Assembly (NCBI GenBank): GCA_001789515.1
Contig: MFZT01000045.1
Span: 1-10,040, forward strand
Reading direction: 5' to 3'
Length of the DNA: 10,040 nt
Source of the DNA: Candidatus Roizmanbacteria bacterium RIFCSPHIGHO2_02_FULL_43_11
Lineage (GTDB): Bacteria; Patescibacteriota; Microgenomatia; UBA1406; HO2-37-13b
Shown one piece after another: positions 1-10,040 of this stretch. The position numbers and the translations under genes are program-made. Below the pieces are notes generated by a model. The model worked only from the letters and a program-made list of their open reading frames with translations. It ran no database searches and had not been told where the DNA came from. Position 1 is the stretch's first letter. Each line of letters begins with the position of its first letter.

Positions 1-13
1 AGTTACCGGCATT

Positions 14-86
14 GTTCCCGTAGCTCAAAGGATAGAGCGTTGGTTTGCGGAACCAAAGGTTGGAGGTTCGATTCCTCTCGGGAACG
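14..86 (+). tRNA. tRNA-Arg (anticodon GCG), copy 1
   Basis: The sequence folds as a full cloverleaf: acceptor 14-20 with 79-85, D stem GCTC/GAGC, anticodon stem TTGGT/ACCAA, T stem 62-66 with 74-78 and T loop TTCGATT. The anticodon loop 45-51 places GCG at 47-49, which reads CGC and probably CGU. The D-loop GGATA supplies the A20-type arginine identity base, and the discriminator is G86. The 3' CCA is not encoded, since CA then T follows. Most bacteria read this codon box with ACG (inosine), so GCG is unusual. Confidence 0.95.
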
Positions 87-102
87 CATAGTTACCGGCA
101 TT

Positions 103-175
103 GTTCCCGTAGCTCAAAGGATAGAGCGTTGGTTTGCGGAACCAAAGGTTGGAGGTTCGATTCCTCTCGGGAACG
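103..175 (+). tRNA. tRNA-Arg (anticodon GCG), copy 2
   Basis: This is an exact copy of the tRNA at 14-86, displaced by 89 nt together with its 5' flank. It has the same fold and the same anticodon GCG at 136-138. It carries no separate promoter, so both copies are probably cut from one precursor that starts upstream of the window. Confidence 0.95.
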
Positions 176-190
176 CATGGAGTATGATTA

Positions 191-738: not shown

Positions 739-809
739 GGGGGCGTAGTTAAATGGTATAACAGAGGTCTCCAAAACCTCTATTGGGAGTTCAATTCTCT
801 CCGCCCCTG
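739..809 (+). tRNA. tRNA-Trp (anticodon CCA)
   Basis: The cloverleaf is complete: acceptor 739-745 with 802-808 (first pair G-U), D stem GTTA/TAAC, anticodon stem GAGGT/ACCTC with loop CTCCAAA and anticodon CCA at 771-773, T stem GGGAG/CTCTC with loop TTCAATT, and discriminator G809 as expected for Trp. CCA is not encoded, since the DNA continues with CA then AAAGAGC. The anticodon reads UGG only, consistent with TGA as stop. The 3' acceptor strand plus flank (803-818) is shared with the right ends of the dispersed A repeats downstream, which makes this tRNA a candidate founding attachment site. Confidence 0.95.
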
Positions 810-845
810 CAAAAGAGCCTCACAGTAACCCATAACCTCCTATGC

Positions 846-851
846 TATACT
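846..851 (+). promoter_or_regulatory. Extended -10 box for the hydrolase gene
   Basis: TATACT is preceded by TGC and ends 6 nt before the ATG at 858. It sits 36 nt after the tRNA-Trp end. This geometry predicts a leaderless message and argues against the longer reading frame that would start inside the tRNA. Confidence 0.7.
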
Positions 852-857
852 ATCCTC

Positions 858-1604
858 ATGATTGACAGACGCCCATTCACGCTCCAAGAGTCTCCTGTTT
901 CAGGTGAAATTCATGGAGACCCCGCTTCAAAGAAAGTTGTCGTACTTTCTCATGGATTTGGCGTTTTTAGAGATTCAAGAGGTATGTATACAGAGCTCGC
1001 AGAACGACTTGGTCAAGATCGACTTGTTGTTCTTTTTGACTATGTTGACGTTGACGAAGCAGGGGACACCACAGTCCGTCCTCTAACAGAACAATCTGCA
1101 ATGCTCAACGCAGTGCTGAGACATGTTCGAGAAACTTACAACGTTAAGGAACTCTCAATTGTTGCTCATTCTCAAGGTTGTCTTGTAGTGGGTTTGTCTA
1201 ATCCTGACAATGTAGATAAGGTCGTACTCAACGCTTCGCCTATGGCAGCACCTAGTCAAGCAAGAATGCAGGAAACGTTTGGCTCACGTGAAGGAACTCA
1301 CATTGTTAGTGATGGTATAAGCACTATAAAACGATCAGATGGGAAATTAACTTATATTCCACCGGAATTCTGGGCAGAGACAGCAGGAATTCATCCTATT
1401 GAGCTTTACGCACGATTAGCAGAGAGGACCAATGTATATATCGTTCAAGCAATGCAGGATCATGTGTTACCTAATCAAGATTATTCCGCTCTGAGAGATA
1501 TTGAAGGCATCACATATATCGAGCTTGATGGAAATCATGATTTTGCTGGCGATGCACGAGAAGGCTGGCTAAATTTGATGGTTCAGCTTATTGAAGGAAA
1601 ATAA
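858..1604 (+). CDS. Alpha/beta-fold hydrolase (serine hydrolase)
   Basis: This is a 248-aa cytoplasmic alpha/beta hydrolase. It has an HGFG oxyanion-hole motif at residues 32-35, a nucleophile elbow AHSQG at 103-107 (Ser105), a candidate acid Asp201 in MQDHVLP, and a catalytic His227 in GNHDF. Length and motif spacing fit the Ser-Asp-His esterase/lipase-like hydrolase family; the substrate cannot be told. The open frame extends upstream to 783, but that would run through tRNA-Trp. The ATG at 858 lies 6 nt after TATACT and begins MIDRRPF, so it is preferred. It is the first gene after tRNA-Trp. It ends 13 nt before the kinase gene, and the kinase promoter lies in that gap. No repeat A follows it, so the hydrolase and kinase may form one two-gene unit. 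Confidence 0.85.
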   Translation: MIDRRPFTLQESPVSGEIHGDPASKKVVVLSHGFGVFRDSRGMYTELAERLGQDRLVVLFDYVDVDEAGDTTVRPLTEQSAMLNAVLRHVRETYNVKELSIVAHSQGCLVVGLSNPDNVDKVVLNASPMAAPSQARMQETFGSREGTHIVSDGISTIKRSDGKLTYIPPEFWAETAGIHPIELYARLAERTNVYIVQAMQDHVLPNQDYSALRDIEGITYIELDGNHDFAGDAREGWLNLMVQLIEGK

Positions 1605-1605
1605 G

Positions 1606-1611
1606 TATACT
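1606..1611 (+). promoter_or_regulatory. -10 box for the P-loop kinase gene
   Basis: TATACT starts one base after the hydrolase stop codon and ends 6 nt before the ATG at 1618. A separate promoter in so short a gap suggests each gene is independently expressed. No TGN extension or clear -35 is seen. Confidence 0.6.
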
Positions 1612-1617
1612 GTCGGT

Positions 1618-2109
1618 ATGAAACCTCTCACAATCATTGCTCAAGAAATACACAAACTTCAAACTAAAAAACCGTGTGTCATTGTTGCCATTGACGGAAG
1701 AAGTGGTTCAGGGAAAAGTTCTTTCGCTAAAAAGCTCCAAGAGTTCCTGCCAGAAAGCCGAATCGTGCATTTGGATGAGTTTGACTTGTATGAAGGCTCA
1801 CCAAATATCCAGAGACTTATTGAAAAGGTCATATCACCTTTGATAACAAACTCAAAAAAAGCAGAAATTGTTATTTTGGAAGGTGTTTTTGCACTAAGAG
1901 AAAAGCTTCTTGCATACTACGATTACAAAATTTGGGTAGACTGCCCTAAAGAAATCGGATTTGAAAGAGGTTTGAAACGCGATATTGCCCTGAATGGAAT
2001 CGACAATTCAGACAGATGGAGGGATTACTGGTTACCGAAGGAAGAGGAATATATTGCATCGGAGAATCCTCACGCGAAAGCTGATGTGGTGGTTGACGGA
2101 AACATGTAA
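1618..2109 (+). CDS. P-loop kinase, uridine kinase-like
   Basis: This 163-aa protein has a Walker A motif GRSGSGKS at residues 27-34 after a hydrophobic beta strand (VIVAID). LDEFD at 52-56 fits the base/substrate-binding acidic position, and VILEGVFAL (85-93) resembles the second core strand. The arginine-rich ERGLKRD segment (116-122) resembles a LID, and the C-terminus reads HAKADVVVDGN. This order matches the uridine kinase/phosphoribulokinase-type P-loop family; the true phosphate acceptor is unknown. The longest frame starts at 1591 inside the hydrolase, but the ATG at 1618 fits the TATACT box 6 nt upstream and the usual N-terminus. The stop TAA (2107-2109) overlaps the first two bases of repeat A1. 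Confidence 0.85.
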   Translation: MKPLTIIAQEIHKLQTKKPCVIVAIDGRSGSGKSSFAKKLQEFLPESRIVHLDEFDLYEGSPNIQRLIEKVISPLITNSKKAEIVILEGVFALREKLLAYYDYKIWVDCPKEIGFERGLKRDIALNGIDNSDRWRDYWLPKEEEYIASENPHAKADVVVDGNM

Positions 2110-2140
2110 TACGTTCCCACCTCGTGCACTAGCCCCTGCA
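2108..2140 (+). repeat. Dispersed repeat A, copy A1
   Basis: This copy starts AATACGTTCCCAC and ends AGCCCCTGCA, and overlaps the kinase stop codon. GCCCCTGCAAAAG (2132-2144) is identical to 803-815 at the 3' end of tRNA-Trp. It contains the palindrome GTGCAC. Confidence 0.85.
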
Positions 2141-2196
2141 AAAGGTTCCGACCAAACATGTACCTACCGCCAATGTACGATGTCAGAACTTCTTGG

Positions 2197-2202
2197 TATA
2201 CT
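2197..2202 (+). promoter_or_regulatory. Extended -10 box for the SET-domain gene
   Basis: TATACT is preceded by TGG and ends 7 nt before the ATG at 2210. It is the only convincing promoter between repeat A1 and this gene. Confidence 0.7.
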
Positions 2203-2209
2203 TGTCACT

Positions 2210-2536
2210 ATGACAGAGATCCTTATTGGAACAGGGGAACTTGCTGGAAAAGGCGTATATGCCGATAGGGATTTCAAAAAAGGTGATGTCGTAATTCAGT
2301 ACAATCTCGTTCCACTAACAGAAGTAGAATATGCCGCATTACCACATGGAGAAAGAATGTTTACTCATATCCAAGGAGGCACAATATATCTTTACTCTGA
2401 TCCAGAAAGATATGTCAACCATTCAACCGATCCCAACACTTATCAAGATCACACACTTCATGCCGATATTGCTCTTTGTGACATAGTTAGAGGAGAAATG
2501 ATCACTACGGATGCGAGGAAAGATGATACTGAATAA
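2210..2536 (+). CDS. Small SET-domain protein
   Basis: This 108-aa protein is almost nothing but a SET fold. ILIGTGELAGKGVYA at the N-terminus is the glycine-rich SET-N signature, RDFKKGDVVIQY follows, and RYVNHSTDPN (68-76) carries the NHS..PN methyl-donor-binding motif. DIVRGEMITTDAR (91-103) lies where SET enzymes have GEEL-x-(Y/F)DY. SET proteins transfer methyl from S-adenosylmethionine to protein lysines. Here the usual DY is DA and no post-SET cysteines exist, so activity is uncertain. The frame is open from 1994 inside the kinase gene, but the ATG at 2210 follows TATACT by 7 nt and begins the domain. The gene lies between A1 and A2, and its TAA stop touches A2. SET proteins are mainly eukaryotic but occur in many bacteria. 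Confidence 0.85.
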   Translation: MTEILIGTGELAGKGVYADRDFKKGDVVIQYNLVPLTEVEYAALPHGERMFTHIQGGTIYLYSDPERYVNHSTDPNTYQDHTLHADIALCDIVRGEMITTDARKDDTE

Positions 2537-2569
2537 AATAGTTCCCAACTTCGTACACCAGCCCCTGCT
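2537..2569 (+). repeat. Dispersed repeat A, copy A2
   Basis: This copy starts directly after the SET gene stop codon (TAA 2534-2536). It has the same order of blocks as A1 and A3 (AATAGTTCCCAACTTCG, then ACACCAGCCCCTGCT), with one base shifted near the left end. Its left part can form AGTT-CCC-AACT. Confidence 0.85.
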
Positions 2570-2598
2570 GAAATCAGTTCATCCATATAATCATAAGG

Positions 2599-2604
2599 TA
2601 TACT
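2599..2604 (+). promoter_or_regulatory. -10 box for the PDZ protein gene
   Basis: TATACT ends 6 nt before the ATG at 2611 and lies 30 nt after repeat A2. No clear -35 or TGN extension is seen. Confidence 0.6.
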
Positions 2605-2610
2605 TTTCAT

Positions 2611-3294
2611 ATGAGTATTAAAAATAAGCGAACTGAATTCATAACACTTATCGCAGCTTTGTTGTTGATGAGTGGAGTCCAAGGAACTTTTGGGGGTCTG
2701 TATGCTTTGAGAAATGGACTTGGTATTGTTTCTAAAGGTGAAACCAAAATTGTTAGAGTTCTGCCGAACTCACCAGCTGCTGAATCAGACCTAAAAATAG
2801 GGGACATTCTTCTTTCAATCGATACTCAACAGGTTGAATCTACACAGTCATTTTTGGAGATAACATCAAAATATAGGGATTCACCAATTCCTCTTGTCGT
2901 CCAACGAGATGGAAAAATGATGCAAGTTGAAATTACTCCACGTACAAATATACCAGCACATGAAGGAGCTCTTGGGCTTGAGATAACAGATAAGAAACAT
3001 GACACAAGACCTGTATATTTACTGTTAATAGCGTCAATAATAAGTTTACTCGTAGCAGTAGGTATCTGGCGATTGAAAAAATGGGCCTTATATGGTTTCA
3101 TCGCTTTGTCAGTTTACCAAGTATTGAGCTTGATCTACCCAATTTTAGCAGGATATCAAATTGTAGATAGCTCACGATCTCGTTTTTCTCCAGAGCAATC
3201 TCTATTGATTGCCTTATTTGTCATATTCGGTGAAATAATTTGGGAAATACTGATTGCAGCTTATATGTATCGAAAAAGGAATTTATTCTCATAG
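2611..3294 (+). CDS. Membrane protein with an extracytoplasmic PDZ domain
   Basis: This is a 227-aa protein. Residues 8-30 form an N-terminal hydrophobic anchor after a basic start (MSIKNKR). A PDZ-like domain follows at about 36-125: GLGIVSKGETKIVRVLPNSPAAESDLKIGDILLSIDTQQV has the carboxylate-loop-like and NSPAA..DLKIGD.I features of HtrA/S1C and site-2-protease PDZ domains. Three further membrane helices lie at about 134-154, 158-182 and 198-220, ending in a basic tail RKRN. No protease domain is present (no GNSGG or HExxH), so this is a PDZ scaffold or sensor rather than a protease. It may bind protein C-termini or unfolded peptides at the membrane; that role is inferred. The gene lies between A2 and A3. 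Confidence 0.85.
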   Translation: MSIKNKRTEFITLIAALLLMSGVQGTFGGLYALRNGLGIVSKGETKIVRVLPNSPAAESDLKIGDILLSIDTQQVESTQSFLEITSKYRDSPIPLVVQRDGKMMQVEITPRTNIPAHEGALGLEITDKKHDTRPVYLLLIASIISLLVAVGIWRLKKWALYGFIALSVYQVLSLIYPILAGYQIVDSSRSRFSPEQSLLIALFVIFGEIIWEILIAAYMYRKRNLFS

Positions 3295-3311
3295 TATCAA
3301 CTCACAAGCAA

Positions 3312-3344
3312 AATACGTTCCCACTTCGTACACCAGCGCCTGCA
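3312..3344 (+). repeat. Dispersed repeat A, copy A3
   Basis: This copy has blocks AATACGTTCCCACTTCG and ACACCAGCGCCTGCA and begins 17 nt after the PDZ gene stop. CCTGCAAAAGAGC (3339-3351) is identical to 806-818 at the end of tRNA-Trp. The left half contains the inverted pair TACG/CGTA. Confidence 0.85.
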
Positions 3345-3362
3345 AAAGAGCATTGTAGCAAG

Positions 3363-3941
3363 CTAAACGAACTTATCCTTCAGATCTTTCTTATTATAGC
3401 CTTCGTAAAACTTCAGAATCTCATCAAGATTATCTGATGAGAAAAATAGCTCCTCTGGGGCAATTCTCGAGAATGCTTTTTCATGCATTTCGCTCAAAAA
3501 AGTGAATAGGTTGTCGTAAAAACCTTCAAAGTTCATGATTGCAATTGGTTTGGAGTAGAGCTTGTTTGCTTGTCCACCAATTATCGAGCCAATTTCTTCA
3601 AATGTGCCATACCCTCCTGGGAGAATAAGGTACGCGTCAGATAACTCAATAATTTTTCTTTTTCGATCTTCCATTGTTGCAACGGTATATTCTTCATCAA
3701 GCTGATCAAACTTTTCGTAGTTTTTTGTGACTGCAACGAGGTCTTCAGCGAGAACACCACACAGACTCGTGCCTCCATGCTGTTTATACGCTTCGGCAAG
3801 CTTCTTCATCATCCCATATGAGGTGCCACCATAGACAATGCCGTGACTCTTTTGAGCGAAAATTTTCGCAACTGTCTCTGTTAGGTCAATATATTTTTGA
3901 CCGATATCAAGTGACGAGGTAAGTGTTATTCCAATTCTCAT
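3363..3941 (-). CDS. LOG-family protein (predicted nucleotide phosphoribohydrolase)
   Basis: This 192-aa protein has the LOG/TIGR00730 fold (long misannotated as lysine decarboxylase). YGGTSYGMM at 37-45 is the N-terminal nucleotide-binding loop, MEDRKRKI at 90-97 supplies the conserved Arg-Lys, and PGGYGTFEEI at 108-117 is the PGGxGTxxE catalytic signature. Family members hydrolyse nucleoside 5'-monophosphates, including cytokinin riboside monophosphate, to base and ribose 5-phosphate. The substrate here is unknown. The frame is open to 4115, but the ATG at 3941 (MRIGIT) lies 9 nt after an extended -10 on the minus strand and gives the normal family length. It is divergent from the small membrane protein gene, and both lie between A3 and A4, so they may travel together. 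Confidence 0.9.
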   Translation of the reverse strand: MRIGITLTSSLDIGQKYIDLTETVAKIFAQKSHGIVYGGTSYGMMKKLAEAYKQHGGTSLCGVLAEDLVAVTKNYEKFDQLDEEYTVATMEDRKRKIIELSDAYLILPGGYGTFEEIGSIIGGQANKLYSKPIAIMNFEGFYDNLFTFLSEMHEKAFSRIAPEELFFSSDNLDEILKFYEGYNKKDLKDKFV

Positions 3942-3950
3942 ATTGATATG

Positions 3951-3956
3951 ATTGTA
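3951..3956 (-). promoter_or_regulatory. Extended -10 box for the LOG gene (minus strand)
   Basis: On the minus strand TACAAT is preceded by TGC and ends 9 nt before the LOG start codon. It lies back to back with the plus-strand promoter at 3971-3976, so the two polymerases would compete for a 41-bp gap. Confidence 0.65.
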
Positions 3957-3970
3957 GCAGAAAGATTTGG

Positions 3971-3976
3971 TACACT
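3971..3976 (+). promoter_or_regulatory. Extended -10 box for the small membrane protein gene
   Basis: TACACT is preceded by TGG and ends 6 nt before the ATG at 3983. Confidence 0.65.
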
Positions 3977-3982
3977 TTGTAG

Positions 3983-4227
3983 ATGAAAGGTAAGGTGGCG
4001 GAAATAATCGGTTGGTATGGTACGTTAGCACTTCTTGCAGCATATGCACTTGTAAGCTTTCAAATTGTTCCTGCAAATGGGTTTGTGTATCAGTTCTTAA
4101 ACCTAACAGGTGCAATTGGGATAATTGTGATTGCCCTGTACAAAGGGGTATATCAATCTGTAGTGCTCAATATCTTTTTGGGGGGGGGATTGCGCTGGTT
4201 GCACTTATAAAGATTTTTGCACAGTAA
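3983..4227 (+). pseudogene. Small integral membrane protein, frameshifted in a run of nine G
   Basis: As read, the frame ends at 4210 after 75 residues with an unlikely tail, RWLHL. The run of nine G at 4180-4188 shifts the frame. One more G (or two fewer) rejoins IALVALIKIFAQ, ending at TAA 4225-4227, to give about 80 residues. The restored protein has three hydrophobic segments (about 9-28, 34-54 and 59-78) and the core IGWYGTLALLAAYALVSF followed by NLTGAIGIIVIALYK. This resembles small CBU_0592-like inner-membrane proteins of unknown transport or structural role. Independent support for the frameshift is that repeat A4 begins one base after the downstream stop, as with A1 and A2. It could be a homopolymer sequencing error, phase variation or true decay. 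Confidence 0.75.
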
Positions 4228-4260
4228 AATAAGTTCCAACATAGTTCACTAGCGCCTGCT
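4228..4260 (+). repeat. Dispersed repeat A, copy A4
   Basis: This is the most diverged good copy (AATAAGTTCCAACATAG, then TTCACTAGCGCCTGCT). It starts immediately after the TAA that ends the repaired membrane protein frame, and repeat B1 follows 6 nt later. The composite A4+B1 spans about 77 nt. Confidence 0.8.
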
Positions 4261-4265
4261 TTTCT

Positions 4266-4304
4266 AACCTCCGGAGTTCGGAAGGCCGCCCGGACAGTCT
4301 GAAC
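4266..4304 (+). repeat. Dispersed repeat B, copy B1
   Basis: This copy begins AACCTCCGGAGTTCGGAAG, and its centre is the 8-bp palindrome CTCCGGAG. GTTCGGA (4276-4282) can pair with TCTGAAC (4298-4304, one G-U), so the right half could form a hairpin. It is the only copy that lies wholly outside any coding frame. Confidence 0.85.
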
Positions 4305-4857
4305 CGAAACACCCATTGCTATGAGGTGTATCTAGACTCAATTTTGCCCATGTCATTGTGACCTGTAGTATATAGTACCACCAGTGCATCGATATAATTT
4401 GATGAGTGGCTACAATACTCTGTGGGTGTAGAAATACAATCGTGGATATCCATGTGAGAAATAATGCAGCTGACCGTTGTATAGCTTGCATCTTTATTCA
4501 CAGCGCTAAACCTTTCTTGGTAAGTCGGACCCCGCTTTTCATTATCAGCAAAGCTGACATGTCGAGGGCACTACACACAAAACGATATATGCAGTACTCT
4601 CGCCTGAAAAGCAAATACAACAGAACATCAAGGTGTAAATAAAAGTAGCCTCAACTTAATAAAACAGCAATAGTTGAATCTCATCAAAGCTACCGAAACC
4701 CTTTGTATCATTATTACTATAGGTTGTCAAGACCATGCAGGCTCAATTCTTGAGTTCTAAAACGAAGTGCAACACTGTTGGTAGAGTAACCTCCACAACC
4801 TTCAGCAAAGTAGTAATAATCCATTTCAATCCCATTGCTTTCTAAACACTTATCTAC
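4305..4857. other. Gene-poor stretch, possibly holding decayed minus-strand reading frames
   Basis: No convincing intact gene is seen. Two minus-strand stretches read like protein but lack good starts. One is 4319-4570, 83 codons after an upstream TAG; its only plausible start is GTG at 4501, and it includes AVNKDASYTTVSC and MGKIESRYTS at the end, with its stop 14 nt from repeat B1. The other is 4717-4824, 35 codons beginning MDYYYFAEGCGGYS. A 7-bp inverted repeat, AGGTTGT (4721-4727) and ACAACCT (4795-4801), lies in the second half. The plus-strand frame at 4406-4642 looks random. The best reading is remnants of one or two cassette genes; chance open frames cannot be excluded. Confidence 0.35.
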
Positions 4858-4863
4858 TATAAT
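4835..4863 (+). promoter_or_regulatory. Promoter of the toxin-antitoxin operon
   Basis: TTGCTT (4835-4840), a 17-nt spacer and a perfect TATAAT (4858-4863) form a good sigma-70-type promoter. The -10 ends 9 nt before the antitoxin ATG. Type II antitoxins usually repress their own promoter, so an operator is likely here, but no clear palindrome is seen. Confidence 0.65.
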
Positions 4864-4872
4864 TCACATATT

Positions 4873-5133
4873 ATGACCAAAGTACAACTTTCTCTAACCC
4901 CAGAAGAGGCAGCTATTTTAATCGGTTATGGAGACCAGTTTGGATATAGTCTGCCAAAAACTATTAAATTTATGATTAGTAAGGCAACGGAAAGCGTTGT
5001 TCGATCGGGCAGTTTACCTGTATATGACTTGCCCGACTCTCTGGAAAAAAGGGGTCTTCAGGCTCTCAAAGAACACAGGGCTGGAAAAACATCCGAAGTC
5101 AAAAATTTTGCTGAGTATTTTGACTCCATATGA
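4873..5133 (+). CDS. Type II antitoxin, ribbon-helix-helix-like
   Basis: This 86-aa protein is encoded just upstream of, and overlapping, a RelE-superfamily toxin. The N-terminus, MTKVQLSLTPEEAAILIGYGDQFGYSLPKTIKFMISKA, has the beta-strand, helix, helix pattern of a ribbon-helix-helix DNA-binding domain. The C-terminal half (about 45-86) is charged and likely disordered until it wraps the toxin. The expected role is to neutralise the toxin and, as a complex, repress the operon. Its TGA stop overlaps the toxin ATG in an ATGA junction, which favours translational coupling. Recognition rests mainly on the toxin and on gene order; no specific antitoxin family is claimed. Confidence 0.75.
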   Translation: MTKVQLSLTPEEAAILIGYGDQFGYSLPKTIKFMISKATESVVRSGSLPVYDLPDSLEKRGLQALKEHRAGKTSEVKNFAEYFDSI

Positions 5134-5393
5134 GGCACGTTATTTTTACGGATGGGTTCAAGAAACAAGCCAATAAATTATGTCGAAAAAATCCGTCTTT
5201 GAGAAAACAGCTTGCCAAACAATTTCAGATATTTTCGCTTGGTGAGTATAGCCCTCCTATAAGACTTCATAAGCTTAGAGGCAGACGATCTACACAATAC
5301 GCCATATGGATTGAAAGTGATTTACGGGCAATTGCAGTCAAAGATGGAGATGCGTATATTTTCTTTGAGCTTGCTGCCCATGATAAGTATTAG
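5130..5393 (+). CDS. Type II toxin, RelE/YafQ-type mRNA endonuclease
   Basis: This 87-aa protein has the size and fold pattern of RelE/ParE-superfamily toxins. There is an N-terminal strand and two charged helices (FTDGFKKQANKLCRKNPSLRKQLAKQFQIF), then RLHKLRG at 45-51, YAIWIESDLRAIAVKDGDAYIFFEL and a terminal AAHDKY. The HKLRG block, Arg66 in the strand and His84 in the C-terminal AAHDKY correspond to positions used by YafQ/RelE ribosome-dependent mRNA interferases. DNA-gyrase-targeting ParE has a similar fold but usually lacks the histidines, so an RNase role is favoured. It is translated after the antitoxin through the 4-nt ATGA overlap. The stop TAG at 5391-5393 is followed 3 nt later by repeat A5. 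Such pairs are frequent cargo in integron cassette arrays, where they stabilise the array. Confidence 0.85.
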   Translation: MRHVIFTDGFKKQANKLCRKNPSLRKQLAKQFQIFSLGEYSPPIRLHKLRGRRSTQYAIWIESDLRAIAVKDGDAYIFFELAAHDKY

Positions 5394-5396
5394 CAA

Positions 5397-5430
5397 AATA
5401 CGCCCCACCTCCTGCACTAGTGCCAGCTGC
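5397..5430 (+). repeat. Dispersed repeat A, copy A5 (variant right end)
   Basis: The left half is typical (AATACGCCCCACCTCCTG, then CACTAG). The right half changes to TGCCAGCTGC. It begins 3 nt after the toxin stop. Three other nearby sites share the CAAAAGAGC-type sequence that follows A3, including 5458-5466. Confidence 0.7.
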
Positions 5431-5838: not shown

Positions 5839-6420
5839 ATGCCGGAAACTGATAGAGTGAGTTACTGGTTGGAAAGATTTCTAAAAGATGCTAAAAAATT
5901 GAGTCACGAACAACGCTTGGACTTAACTGTAGCATATTTAGTTCACTTTTGTAGTCTCACTCCCGATGAAGTTGCTTTCTTTTCTGATGAAAGCTTTTTT
6001 TCATCAGCTCATGATATAGACAAAACGCTTATATTTGCACGTATTGAACAAAAGCTTGCTGCTTACTATGGCGCTGGGTATCCAGATCCGAATACCGATG
6101 AGTACTCCTTCCTTGCGACTGCAGCAGCTGTCTACTCCCAAGCGTTTTCTACAATACTGGCTGGGATATACTCTACAGCAGAATGTGCCGAAATCGCATC
6201 TCTTATTATCAATCCGTGGGATTGGGGAGAGGTACGTGCAATCCTCGTAGGAAAAGATTTTTTCCTCGCTCGAAGAATACGTAATGCCTACTTACCTGAA
6301 ATAACGGATTGCTATGTTGTGACAGGTGACGGATCAGTCTACGATATAGATCTTTTCGACAGACCAGATCAAGGCGGCAACCTCCGGAGTTCGGAAGAGC
6401 GCCCTGGCAAGCTAAACTGA
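5839..6420 (+). CDS. Hypothetical 193-aa protein whose C-terminus is made of repeat B
   Basis: I do not recognise this protein. It begins MPETDRVSYWLERFLKDAKKLSHEQR and is mostly helical and acidic up to about residue 120. A hydrophobic, alanine-rich helix (ATAAAVYSQAFSTILAGIY) follows, then NPWDWGEVRAILVGKDFFLARR and a strand-rich end. The frame is open from 5785, but the ATG at 5839 follows TATAAT by 6 nt. The last 13 residues, NLRSSEERPGKLN, together with the stop, are encoded by repeat B2, so the native C-terminus was probably replaced when the repeat arrived. There is no signal peptide. Confidence 0.7.
   Translation: MPETDRVSYWLERFLKDAKKLSHEQRLDLTVAYLVHFCSLTPDEVAFFSDESFFSSAHDIDKTLIFARIEQKLAAYYGAGYPDPNTDEYSFLATAAAVYSQAFSTILAGIYSTAECAEIASLIINPWDWGEVRAILVGKDFFLARRIRNAYLPEITDCYVVTGDGSVYDIDLFDRPDQGGNLRSSEERPGKLN
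6379..6417 (+). repeat. Dispersed repeat B, copy B2 (inside coding sequence)
   Basis: The first 26 nt (6379-6404), AACCTCCGGAGTTCGG then AAGAGCGCCC, are identical to B3. They are read here as codons AAC CTC CGG. The repeat encodes the final residues of the 193-aa protein, and the TGA stop begins just after it at 6418. Confidence 0.85.
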
Positions 6421-6524
6421 ATCCATCTTTGCTCTGGGATAAATTTAGCCTCAATATTCAACCGTTTCACAGGCTCTGTAGTATAGGAGCCAGATATAAG
6501 TAAACTCACCTTCCATTTTCATGC

Positions 6525-6597: not shown

Positions 6598-7158
6598 ATG
6601 TCACCTGATCGTAGCGAAAACCAAACAGCGCAATTGGCTTTGCAAGGGACTATTGAGCTTAAATCCCCGTCAGGCAGAATCATTCTGCAGCAATTTACTC
6701 CCAGTGATGCTCAAGATATTTTTGACTTAATAAATAGAAATCGTGCTCATCTTTCTCAGCACGGTGATCAGACAGCGCAGAAGTATCAAACGGTTTCGGA
6801 CGTACTGAAAAGCATTGCTCACCCTACAAATCCATCCAAACTGCGCTTTGCAATCAGAACAGCGGATGGTATCCTCGTCGGCAGCATTAACCTTACTCCA
6901 GATAGCGACAACCCTCATAGAGGAGAAGTCGGATACTATTTGGGAGCCGAGGGCACTGGTCAGGGATACGCAACTGAGGCAGTAAAAACGCTATGTGCAT
7001 ATGCGTTTGAGACATTGGGATATGAAGAGCTTTATGCAAAGGTTGTTCATGCAAATGGACCCTCTGCACGAGTCCTTTTGAGGGCTGGGTGGAGAACCTC
7101 CGGAGTTCGGAAGAGCGCCCAGACAGCGCAAAGCGAAATGGTGTTTACTATGGGTTAG
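6598..7158 (+). CDS. GNAT-family N-acetyltransferase (RimJ/RimL-like)
   Basis: This 186-aa protein follows the RimJ/RimL-type acetyltransferase plan. RIILQQFTPSDAQDIFDLINRNRAHLSQ (27-54) is the opening strand and helix. FAIRTADGILVGSINLTP is the central strand pair, and GEVGYYLGAEGTGQGYATEAVKTLCAYAF (109-137) contains the acetyl-CoA pyrophosphate loop (Q/R)xxGxG/A as GTGQGYA. LYAKVVHANGPSARVLLRAGW is the N-x-x-S-x-x-hydrophobic-GW/GF segment that closes the fold. The natural substrate (ribosomal protein N-terminus, antibiotic or small amine) cannot be deduced. From residue 166 the sequence RTSGVRKSAQTAQ is encoded by repeat B3, followed by SEMVFTMG. The start is fixed by TATAAT 8 nt upstream. 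Acetyltransferases are typical cassette cargo. Confidence 0.9.
   Translation: MSPDRSENQTAQLALQGTIELKSPSGRIILQQFTPSDAQDIFDLINRNRAHLSQHGDQTAQKYQTVSDVLKSIAHPTNPSKLRFAIRTADGILVGSINLTPDSDNPHRGEVGYYLGAEGTGQGYATEAVKTLCAYAFETLGYEELYAKVVHANGPSARVLLRAGWRTSGVRKSAQTAQSEMVFTMG
7095..7133 (+). repeat. Dispersed repeat B, copy B3 (inside coding sequence)
   Basis: It shares 26 identical nt with B2 but is read in another frame (A-ACC-TCC-GGA), giving RTSGVRKSAQ. It covers residues 166-178 of the GNAT protein, where the last beta strand of the fold normally lies. Confidence 0.85.
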
Positions 7159-7292
7159 ATCTACTATCAATTTTATCCTAATAGATATGATGTCGTTCTC
7201 GCCTGGCAGACTATCCCCCTCTGAAGACTTTTTGCTTAACATGAACTTGTTTCGTCTCAATCTTGGTTTTAAAATGACTTCTACCTTATAAA

Positions 7293-7964
7293 TCATCTCT
7301 TTCGGATTTTTCTGCCACCGACTGTGGTGTAATAGCTGCTGCCTGCATGCCGAGTTTTTCCATACTCGACCTTGCCACCGTGAGTATCAGCTGTAGCCCA
7401 ATAAAACTCGTCTGCAGCGGAAGAAGGATCTAGAGTTTCATTCAGCCGTTTGCGATGCCGTCCTGTCGTTACATCTCCTGCATTCGCACCGTATCCTCCA
7501 CGAACATCATGTTCCACATTGCCAGGAAAGGAATGACCAGAAAGTGGATCCGGAGTAGCATTTTGTTGTCGAGCTCGCTCTTTTAGAATATGTTGCTTTC
7601 GCCTTGAGATAGATCTCTGATCCTGCTCTCCATGGGGTAATAATGGGGCGAGTTTTGCTCTGTCTATAGTACCACTCTCAAGTTCTAGTAACGCTTCTTG
7701 TATCGCTTTTTCTTTATCTAGAATGTCCTGTAATGTAATACCTAGCTGTGTGTATTCTGACTCAGATGCTCGAAGTTTTTCCTGCTCATGAAGATTAAGG
7801 GTTCTCTTATAATCAGTTGCAATAAGTTCATATAATGCGTTCCTATGAGCCTCTAATTCTTTCTTCAGTGCGGCGAGTTCATCAACAGTTTGCCACAAAA
7901 GGTCAATATATTCCTGTGCTGAGTATGTGGGAATACGGGTTTCACCAGCGCCTGTTTCCTCCAT
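7293..7964 (-). CDS. Hypothetical coiled-coil protein (223 aa)
   Basis: I do not recognise this protein. Residues about 15-110 are a long charged helix with heptad character (LLWQTVDELAALKKELEAH, later LDKEKAIQEALLELESG). They are followed by a basic linker (RSISRRKQHILKERARQQ), a glycine/aspartate-rich region (DVRGGYGANAGD) and a very basic end, GGRKIRKR. This resembles a scaffold or nucleic-acid-associated protein, but no function is claimed. The start is uncertain: ATG 7964 follows GGAGG by only 2 nt, while TTG 7982 would add MATPEV inside repeat B4. No -10 box lies close to either, unlike the other genes, so it is probably the second gene of an operon with 8040-8471 (68-75 nt gap). Its 5' end overlaps the A6/B4 composite. 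Confidence 0.65.
   Translation of the reverse strand: MEETGAGETRIPTYSAQEYIDLLWQTVDELAALKKELEAHRNALYELIATDYKRTLNLHEQEKLRASESEYTQLGITLQDILDKEKAIQEALLELESGTIDRAKLAPLLPHGEQDQRSISRRKQHILKERARQQNATPDPLSGHSFPGNVEHDVRGGYGANAGDVTTGRHRKRLNETLDPSSAADEFYWATADTHGGKVEYGKTRHAGSSYYTTVGGRKIRKR
7932..7955 (+). repeat. Shortened repeat A, copy A6
   Basis: AATACG joins directly to TTTCACCAGCGCCTGT, as if about 8 nt of the middle of repeat A were deleted. Repeat B4 follows 9 nt later, in the same order as A4 and B1. On the minus strand it encodes residues near the N-terminus of the coiled-coil protein (TGAGETRI). Confidence 0.6.
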
Positions 7965-8003
7965 AACCTCCGGAGTTGCCAAGACCGCTCGGGCAGTCTA
8001 AAA
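7965..8003 (+). repeat. Dispersed repeat B, copy B4
   Basis: AACCTCCGGAGTT is intact; the right half diverges (GCCAAGACCGCTCGGGCAG) but keeps an internal pairing, AGAC with GTCT. On the minus strand its CTCCGGAGGTT places a GGAGG just before ATG 7964, so the repeat may supply a ribosome binding site. Confidence 0.75.
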
Positions 8004-8039
8004 TAAATAAATTTGACACCCAAATCTCATCATAACGGA

Positions 8040-9773: not shown

Positions 9774-10040
9774 ATGAAAACACCTTATAACGCTTTAACC
9801 AAAATACGCTCCTTTTTCAGGCACCAGCGTAGGCTCCCAACGTATCAGGAACTTGCTGATATCATGGGCTTTGCTTCAAAAAATGCAGCATTCAAGCTTG
9901 CGCACAAGCTCATTGAAGCAGGTTACCTTGAACGCGATAGCAAAGGAAAACTTATCCCAAAGCGATTATTCGCTCCACTACCTCAATCCGGAATCATCAA
10001 AGCCGGTTTTCCAACCGTTGCTGATGAGGACATTACTGAC
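9774..10040 (+). CDS. lexA: LexA-like SOS repressor, N-terminal part (runs off the window)
   Basis: The first 89 residues are present. Residues 1-60 form a LexA winged helix: MKTPYNALTKIRSFFRHQRR, LPTYQELADIMGFASKNAAF (recognition helix region) and KLAHKLIEAGYLERDSKGKL. GIIKAGFP (73-80) contains the Ala77-Gly78 pair at the position of the LexA/UmuD self-cleavage site (Ala84-Gly85 in E. coli LexA). The catalytic Ser/Lys peptidase domain would lie beyond the window. Upstream, in-frame TGA 9738 and no other ATG fix the start at 9774. There is neither a near -10 box nor a ribosome binding site, so it is probably transcribed from 9468-9496, whose operator it likely binds. A UmuD-like or phage-type S24 repressor is less likely given the full DNA-binding domain. 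Confidence 0.85.
   Translation, partial: MKTPYNALTKIRSFFRHQRRLPTYQELADIMGFASKNAAFKLAHKLIEAGYLERDSKGKLIPKRLFAPLPQSGIIKAGFPTVADEDITD

What the first reader, a model, noticed from the sequence alone, without database searches (positions are those of the whole stretch)
2108..5430. Stop-codon-anchored repeat A defines an integron-like gene-cassette array
Five copies of a 33-nt repeat (2108, 2537, 3312, 4228, 5397) share left block AATA(C)GTTCCCAC and right block CACYAGCSCCTGC. They begin 2 nt inside, or 0, 3 or 17 nt after, the stop of a plus-strand gene. The genes between them are unrelated, mostly have their own promoter, and are typical mobile cargo (toxin-antitoxin, hydrolase, SET, PDZ). A further shortened copy is at 7932. 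Repeats placed this precisely at gene ends suggest capture of promoter-gene-repeat cassettes by a recombinase.
Basis: partly seen in the sequence, partly recalled or inferred. Interest (0 to 1): 0.8.

Follow-up and report, generated by a model that had tools for sequence, protein, structure and literature searches.

The report
tRNA-anchored gene cassettes in Patescibacteria
The repeat marks the ends of small gene units lined up behind a tRNA gene; the same 32-letter tag, ending in a near copy of the neighbouring tRNA's last letters, occurs in many related ultra-small bacteria, which points to an integron-like way of collecting genes.

Summary
The repeat is real: four good copies (2108, 2537, 3312, 4228), one decayed copy (5397) and one fragment (7932), at 3' ends of unrelated genes, behind tRNA-Trp (739-810). 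It is neither a genome-wide 3'-end element nor an integron attC. A sequence-only model of the 32-nt site matches 125 of 372 class genomes at E<=0.05 and 9 genomes of other classes of the phylum at E<=0.001. The site has two parts: a conserved ~25-nt arm and a 5-7-nt tail that resembles the 3' end of the tRNA upstream (Trp, Gln, Ser, Tyr, Asp, Asn, Ala). The nearest tRNA lies upstream on the same strand in 49 of 55 loci that hold a tRNA, and tails fit their own tRNA better than permuted ones in three sets. In two genomes a short segment (136 bp; 121 bp) sits exactly behind both a tRNA and a repeat. Best reading: gene+site cassettes inserted at tRNA 3' ends by a recombinase acting in trans. No excision was observed; the recombinase is unknown, two Xer-like enzymes widespread in the class being candidates. 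The cassette idea holds; integron membership does not.

The parts
739..810 (+). tRNA-Trp(CCA); its 3' end CCCCTGC is the anchor and proposed insertion point (attI/attB equivalent)
811..2139 (+). cassette 1: alpha/beta hydrolase (858-1604), uridine-kinase-like P-loop protein (1618-2109), site A1
   Evidence: borders inferred from the tRNA end and A
2108..2139 (+). site A1, tail CCCCTGC identical to the tRNA-Trp 3' end
2140..2568 (+). cassette 2: SET-domain protein (2180-2536) and site A2
2537..2568 (+). site A2 (one base lost after AATA, one gained), tail CCCCTGC
2569..3343 (+). cassette 3: PDZ membrane protein (2611-3294) and site A3
3312..3343 (+). site A3, tail CGCCTGC; followed by AAAAGAGC, the same 8 nt that follow tRNA-Trp
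3344..4259 (+). cassette 4: LOG-family (Lysine_decarbox) gene (3366-3944, minus strand), small membrane-type protein (3983 to about 4227, frame broken at a G run), site A4
4228..4259 (+). site A4, best-scoring copy in the window (37.7 bits)
4260..5427 (+). cassette 5: repeat B, non-coding stretch, antitoxin-like (4873-5133) and RelE/YafQ-like toxin (5130-5393; Pfam matches weak, below cut-off), decayed site A5; homologous pairs closed by a site A lie in L128 (G379) and L210 (G213)
5397..5427 (+). decayed site A5, tail GTGCCAGC (the tail type found behind tRNA-Gln)
7932..7954 (+). fragment of a site A (right half), followed by repeat B
9774..10040 (+). lexA-like gene (Pfam LexA match weak, below cut-off), conserved flank shared with G007; continues beyond the window

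Best explanation
The array is a set of mobile gene cassettes, each made of a promoter, one or two genes and a 3'-terminal recombination site A. A consists of a ~25-nt arm shared across the class and a 5-7-nt tail that is identical or similar to the 3' end (acceptor end, discriminator, first C of CCA) of the tRNA gene behind which the array sits. A recombinase acting in trans joins the tail of a free cassette to the tRNA 3' end, or to the tail of an A already there; the tRNA stays intact and cassettes pile up in one orientation downstream of it. Shown: the site, its sharp borders, its position at gene ends, the tRNA upstream on the same strand, the tail-tRNA fit, variable content, and identical segments behind a tRNA and behind an A in two genomes. 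Inferred: free circular cassettes, promoters, direction of growth, and the enzyme (one of two Xer-like tyrosine recombinases widespread in the class is my best guess).
For: In 78 copies (window copies 2537, 5397 and 7932 dropped) conservation is confined to positions -1 to 32 (in one search eight of the 78 were one base out of register). Nearest tRNA upstream on the same strand: 26 of 29 loci (discovery), 16 of 19 (second set, chosen by model score), 7 of 7 (other classes). Last-5-nt match of tail and tRNA against permuted tRNA ends: 4.31 vs 3.38 (p 5e-5, 26 loci), 3.59 vs 3.05 (p 4e-4, 17 loci), 4.50 vs 3.50 (p 0.017, 6 loci). In the 6 usable loci outside the class the tRNA encodes CCA and A continues to CCA in all 6; four of them (two tRNA-Trp, tRNA-Gln of G454, tRNA-Ala of G591) match over the last 7 nt. 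L138: a 136-bp segment follows both tRNA-Trp and an A (135 of 136 identical) and ends in a tRNA-Trp-like 3' fragment; L169: a 121-bp segment does the same at tRNA-Gln (120 of 121); the L138 segment is absent from the congener G154 at E<=0.001. The window's toxin-antitoxin pair has homologous pairs closed by a site A in G379 and G213, and one starting right behind an A in G365. L064: tRNA-Trp, one NYN gene, A, then secE and nusG as named by eye.
Against: No excised circle and no strain pair differing by one cassette was seen. No recombinase gene was seen to travel with arrays; the Xer-like groups (309 and 337 of 372 genomes) are too widespread to be tied to A. The right side of the junction shows no conserved half-site. 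Misfits: L136, L168 (second array), L209, L212, L223, L224, L227, L243, and window copy 5397, a Gln-type tail in a Trp array; loci with no same-strand tRNA although 4.7 kb or more of upstream sequence was at hand: L056, L135, L137, L140, also L217, L239, L240 with 1.8, 2.0 and 6.2 kb. Gln-type tails (TGCCAGC) mostly match their tRNA only in the last 3-5 nt. In the class, 8 loci with CCA-encoding tRNAs have no CA after A (0 of 8). The L138/L169 repeats could also come from homologous (Campbell-type) recombination.
Confidence: 0.75

Rival explanations
1. A is a conserved RNA-level 3' element (terminator or processing/stability signal) of certain genes, not a recombination site.
For: An ORF ends close to A in 69% of 112 copies; a few copies are followed by terminator-like hairpins (by eye: L060, L137, L138).
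Against: No RNA structure; few copies per genome; clustered in tandem behind tRNAs; the tail follows the tRNA type; identical segments exactly behind A and behind the tRNA.
Confidence: 0.1
2. The units are insertions by a transposase- or Cas1-like enzyme that cuts the tRNA 3' end with a stagger: the arm is a one-sided element end and the tail a 5-7-bp target-site duplication.
For: Tail resembles the tRNA end on both sides of a unit; no conserved right half-site.
Against: No such enzyme was noticed at arrays (not searched for by profile); Gln-array tails keep bases (TGC) of their own that are not in the tRNA, and a Gln-type tail occurs in a Trp array, which a duplication would not give.
Confidence: 0.15
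3. Classical integron or CALIN: A is an attC read by an integron integrase elsewhere in the genome.
For: Array layout, promoters, toxin-antitoxin cargo; CALINs lack the integrase (passages of PMC8618304). The window contig's recombinase scores 213.7 of the 220-bit cut-off of a model described as tyrosine recombinase/integron integrase (NF040815, archaeal XerA).
Against: A is 32 nt without hairpin or inverted partner; the two Xer-like proteins score 116 and 80 of 265 bits with the integron-integrase model TIGR02249; anchored on tRNAs.
Confidence: 0.03
4. Xer/dif-like modules, as the pdif modules of Acinetobacter plasmids.
For: Xer-like recombinases are widespread in the class; small modules with toxin-antitoxin genes are alike.
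Against: A has no two-armed dyad: best 3 and 4 of 11 arm matches in two consensus forms, no better than shuffles; sites in one orientation with few exceptions; tail tied to tRNA.
Confidence: 0.1

Closest known systems
Integron cassette arrays (attC/attI/IntI)
   Same: Tandem gene+site units mostly in one orientation, site at the 3' end of the gene, anchored at a fixed first site, toxin-antitoxin cargo, sites alike within an array and different between genomes.
   Different: Site is 32 nt, unstructured and sequence-conserved across families; anchor is a tRNA 3' end; no IntI found.
tRNA-targeting integrative elements and tycheposons (recalled; one search gave a listing only)
   Same: Use the 3' end of tRNA genes and rebuild it; tRNA-derived identity block at the far end (also seen in the L138 and L169 segments).
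   Different: Units of one or two genes, no integrase seen on board, identity block of 5-7 nt joined to a conserved arm that is not tRNA sequence, several units in tandem.
pdif modules of Acinetobacter plasmids
   Same: Small modules, often toxin-antitoxin, moved by chromosomal Xer enzymes in trans (passages of PMC13141974).
   Different: 28-bp two-armed sites in alternating orientation on plasmids; the word tRNA does not occur in that paper's text.
Casposons / Cas1-type integration at tRNA 3' ends (recalled)
   Same: Target at the tRNA 3' end with a short duplication.
   Different: Larger elements with terminal inverted repeats and a Cas1 gene.

Membership tests
Integron | attC sites that fold into a hairpin | tested here: not met
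   No consensus pairs in 30 copies; A2108 and A3312 fold no better than shuffles; inverted partner within 150 nt at p<0.05 in 2 of 73 (upstream) and 4 of 73 (downstream), the chance level
Integron | integron integrase (IntI) in the genome or at the array | tested here: not met
   One PF00589 match in the 87%-complete genome; 116 of 265 bits with TIGR02249, but 213.7 of 220 with NF040815 (XerA/integron integrase). The missing 13% of the genome was not seen
Integron | tandem gene+site cassettes in one orientation | tested here: met
   (L142 has one copy in the other orientation)
pdif / Xer modules | 28-bp site with two recombinase arms around a 6-8-bp spacer | tested here: not met
tRNA-integrating genomic island | position at a tRNA 3' end with the tRNA end repeated at the distal border | tested here: met
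   tail-tRNA fit in three sets, segments in L138 and L169; insertion itself is inferred
tRNA-integrating genomic island | carries its own integrase | tested here: not met
   Window only: none of 16 proteins scanned is a recombinase. In other loci not every ORF was scanned; serine-recombinase-like ORFs lie near arrays in L135 and L136 (named by eye)
Tyrosine-recombinase system | strand exchange at the site | not testable with these tools
   needs biochemistry

The most novel reading that the evidence does not exclude
A phylum-wide gene-capture system of Patescibacteria, distinct from integrons, in which an unstructured arm plus a tRNA 3'-end tail forms the cassette site and tRNA genes serve as the landing platforms, run by a conserved chromosomal Xer-like recombinase acting in trans.
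Probability: 0.45. Interest if true: 0.95.

Novelty: new variant of a known kind. Interest (0 to 1): 0.85.

Why it matters
Patescibacteria have very small genomes, and how they gain genes is little understood (recalled, not searched). A tRNA-anchored cassette system with a recognisable 32-nt tag would let accessory genes (toxin-antitoxin pairs, transporters, acetyltransferases, unknown proteins) be read out of large genome collections, and would show a second way of building integron-like arrays.

Tried and rejected
Rejected: RNA fold of A; hairpin partner; dif-type dyad; an Rfam family (only tRNAs reached threshold); phage origin (no match of 2100-4300 in the phages collection; 0 matches of the pattern in viral contigs). 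Reverse-strand translation of A gives [QL][AG]LV[DN]YVGTY with codon-like variation, but a stop lies close on one or both sides in nearly all copies; set aside as coincidence. Tying A to one Xer-like group: both are widespread, nothing gained. Ancestral tRNA-Trp/secE adjacency: ARAGORN found no tRNA in the 30 nusG loci fetched (about 1.5 kb of flank, some cut at contig ends), so L064 is not claimed as an empty-site comparison. In G003 (L158) tRNA-Arg/tRNA-Trp lie about 2.3 kb from the lexA-like gene on the other strand, and I saw no convincing A there. Pattern hits in Planctomycetota (L072) and Arthrobacter (L076) look like chance: no AATA start. Literature: the listings showed no such system by title and abstract (open-access PMC only; one search listed 12 of 321 papers); two papers were read in passages only. 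In one search the protein labelled G060a was picked wrongly and is not a recombinase.
Full report
Observation. Four are good; 5397 is decayed and 7932 is a fragment. They follow the stop codons of unrelated plus-strand genes as described. CACYAGCSCCTG occurs 5 times exactly in the 709-kb genome, all in this contig; the model finds three more A copies on contig C33 (6582, 7246, 8392).

Context. The window is contig C45 of a 51-contig, 87%-complete genome. A genome-contig scan for the pattern gives 16 stretches; 10 bear the names Amesbacteria, Roizmanbacteria, Daviesbacteria, Levybacteria or Woesebacteria. In one search, 13 of 144 genomes matched (own included), with 1 control match.

Distribution. 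A 32-position model without structure (R1, from 30 copies) matches 125 of 372 class genomes at E<=0.05, where about 19 are expected by chance from the E-value (which is rough); by hand count of the table 58 reach E<=1e-4. Genomes that supplied model copies match by construction. Over 277 genomes of the phylum 18 match at E<=0.001, 9 of them outside the class. Arrays of 2-5 copies, in one orientation except in L142, with one or a few genes between, occur in G000, G004, G060, G379, G289, G333, G327, G047 and others. Copies of one array often share their tail variant, which differs between genomes (by eye).

Anatomy of A. Conservation in 78 copies runs from -1 to 32 and drops sharply on both sides (which repeats with eight copies put back in register; window copies 2537, 5397, 7932 dropped). 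The arm is AATAAGTTCCAACATAGTCNACYAG. The tail tends to follow the tRNA upstream: CCCCTGC-like at tRNA-Trp, TGCCAGC at tRNA-Gln, CACCGC at tRNA-Ser, CCTGGAC at tRNA-Tyr, GGAGC at tRNA-Asn, CCCGC at tRNA-Asp, GGTCCAC at tRNA-Ala. The discovery set held copies found with patterns that fixed part of the tail, so a second set of 20 loci was chosen by model score alone; it gave the same result, as did 12 loci outside the class.

Counts. Discovery: 41 loci, 29 with any tRNA, 26 in the tail test. Second set: 20, 19, 17. Outside the class: 12, 7, 6. Loci without a same-strand tRNA within 5 kb upstream were left out of the tail test. Some of these are cut short by contig ends (for example L053, L128, L134), but L056, L135, L137 and L140 had 4.7 kb or more upstream without one. 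L071, counted against the rule because its stretch was short, has tRNA-Gln 1.2 kb upstream in the longer stretch L155; it was not re-entered.

Misfits. L136 and the second array of L168 (tail unlike its tRNA), L209 (nearest tRNA 5.9 kb away), L212 (tRNA-Ser with a Trp-like tail), L223 (none upstream), L224 (tRNA-Lys), L227 (tRNA-Pro downstream is nearest), L228 (a tRNA-Arg 4 nt downstream is nearest, though a fitting tRNA-Ser lies upstream), L243 (tRNA-Gly); window copy 5397 has a Gln-type tail. L059 and L143 have only downstream tRNAs in the fetched stretch. In the class, tRNAs that encode CCA (8 loci) are not matched by CA after A, unlike outside the class (6 of 6).

Junction evidence. In L138 (G187) the 136 bp behind tRNA-Trp recur, 135 of 136 identical, behind the A at 915; the segment ends in GGTTCGATATTCCTTCCGCCCCTGC, a tRNA-Trp-like 3' fragment. 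In L169 (G019) a 121-bp segment behind tRNA-Gln recurs behind an A (120 of 121) and ends in a tRNA-Gln-like 3' fragment; the CAGC/CAAC ends are exchanged between its borders. These two were the only long matches when the 60 nt behind each discovery-set A were compared with the 60 nt behind its nearest upstream tRNA within 5 kb; the second set and the loci outside the class were not tested so. The L138 segment has two copies in G187 and none in the congener G154 at E<=0.001; of 14 family genomes searched only one other, G114, had a match, of 30 bases. Site-specific insertion explains both cases; Campbell-type recombination of a circle that already held an A|segment junction is possible too. In the window itself the 8 nt behind tRNA-Trp (AAAAGAGC) recur behind A3312.

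Gain and loss. G007 shares tRNA-Arg, tRNA-Trp, the lexA-like gene, tRNA-Gly and the recombinase with the window contig, but of 15 window proteins encoded between tRNA-Trp and the lexA-like gene only the 62-aa one next to it has a tblastn match in that stretch of G007 (E<=0.01; the first comparison had left out the kinase and the small membrane protein). The toxin-antitoxin pair of cassette 5 has homologous pairs in G379 (52-53% identical) and G213 (49-53%), each closed by a site A, and in G365 (32-48%), where it starts right behind an A and no A was recognised after it; these genomes are of another family. L064 carries one NYN-domain gene plus A between tRNA-Trp and genes that I name secE, nusG and rplK by eye.

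Cargo. Window: hydrolase, uridine-kinase-like, SET, PDZ, LOG family, and further on a GNAT acetyltransferase; the toxin and antitoxin match YafQ and RelB only weakly, below cut-off. Of twenty cassette or near-array proteins from other genomes, NYN, EamA, HD, PemK/MazF toxin, GNAT, M48 peptidase and DKNYY are over cut-off, one is HigB-like just below it, one NikA-like weakly, and 11 of 20 had no Pfam match at 0.001.

Enzyme. PF00589 occurs once in this genome (C45:13772-14866, about 8 kb beyond the array) and in 11 of 12 A-bearing genomes examined. It belongs to a group found in 309 of 372 class genomes at E<=1e-60; a second group is in 337 of 372 at E<=1e-45 but not in G000. Both score best with XerC/XerD models, below their cut-offs. 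The family f14 (Amesbacteria records), which has typical A sites, is missing among the 309 but has the second group at 41-53% identity to the other families (three f14 proteins compared). Neither group is shown to act on A.

Verdict. What it works like: an integron array whose platform is a tRNA gene. What it is a member of: no known family tested here; integron (hairpin, IntI) and dif (two arms) features are not met. I found no description in print in the searches named under Tried and rejected, which cover open-access papers only.

Noticed in passing
window 4266-4345, 6379-6458, 7095-7174, 7965-8008: A second repeat B (AACCTCCGGAGTTCGGAAGAGCG..., about 75 nt, sharp left border): 11 matches in this genome, none in its congener G001, two related matches in G075. 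It follows tRNA-like ends on C24, C27 and C15 (by eye), a tRNA-Val on C33, and A on C45 and C33. Possibly a 3'-end element displaced by cassettes.
   Followed up: partly
window 1-178: Exact tandem duplication of 89 bp holding a tRNA-Arg(GCG) gene.
   Followed up: no
window 3983-4227: Small membrane-type protein whose frame breaks at a run of nine G; sequencing error or decay.
   Followed up: no
window just before 2180 and 2611: TATACT-like boxes only some nt before the ATG of cassette genes (by eye), suggesting leaderless or nearly leaderless mRNAs.
   Followed up: no
L138:779-914 and 3317-3452; L169: Segments of 136 and 121 bp ending in a tRNA 3' fragment, each in two copies; perhaps minimal cassettes or relics of a second site type.
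   Followed up: partly
L064 and L065, directly after A: TTAGCCTCAAAATG-like motif right after A in two different records; GCCTCA also recurs in the window (817, 4648, 6448, 6554).
   Followed up: no
L135:4688-6184, L136:278-1639: Serine-recombinase-like genes (by eye) near two arrays; L135's end overlaps an A.
   Followed up: no
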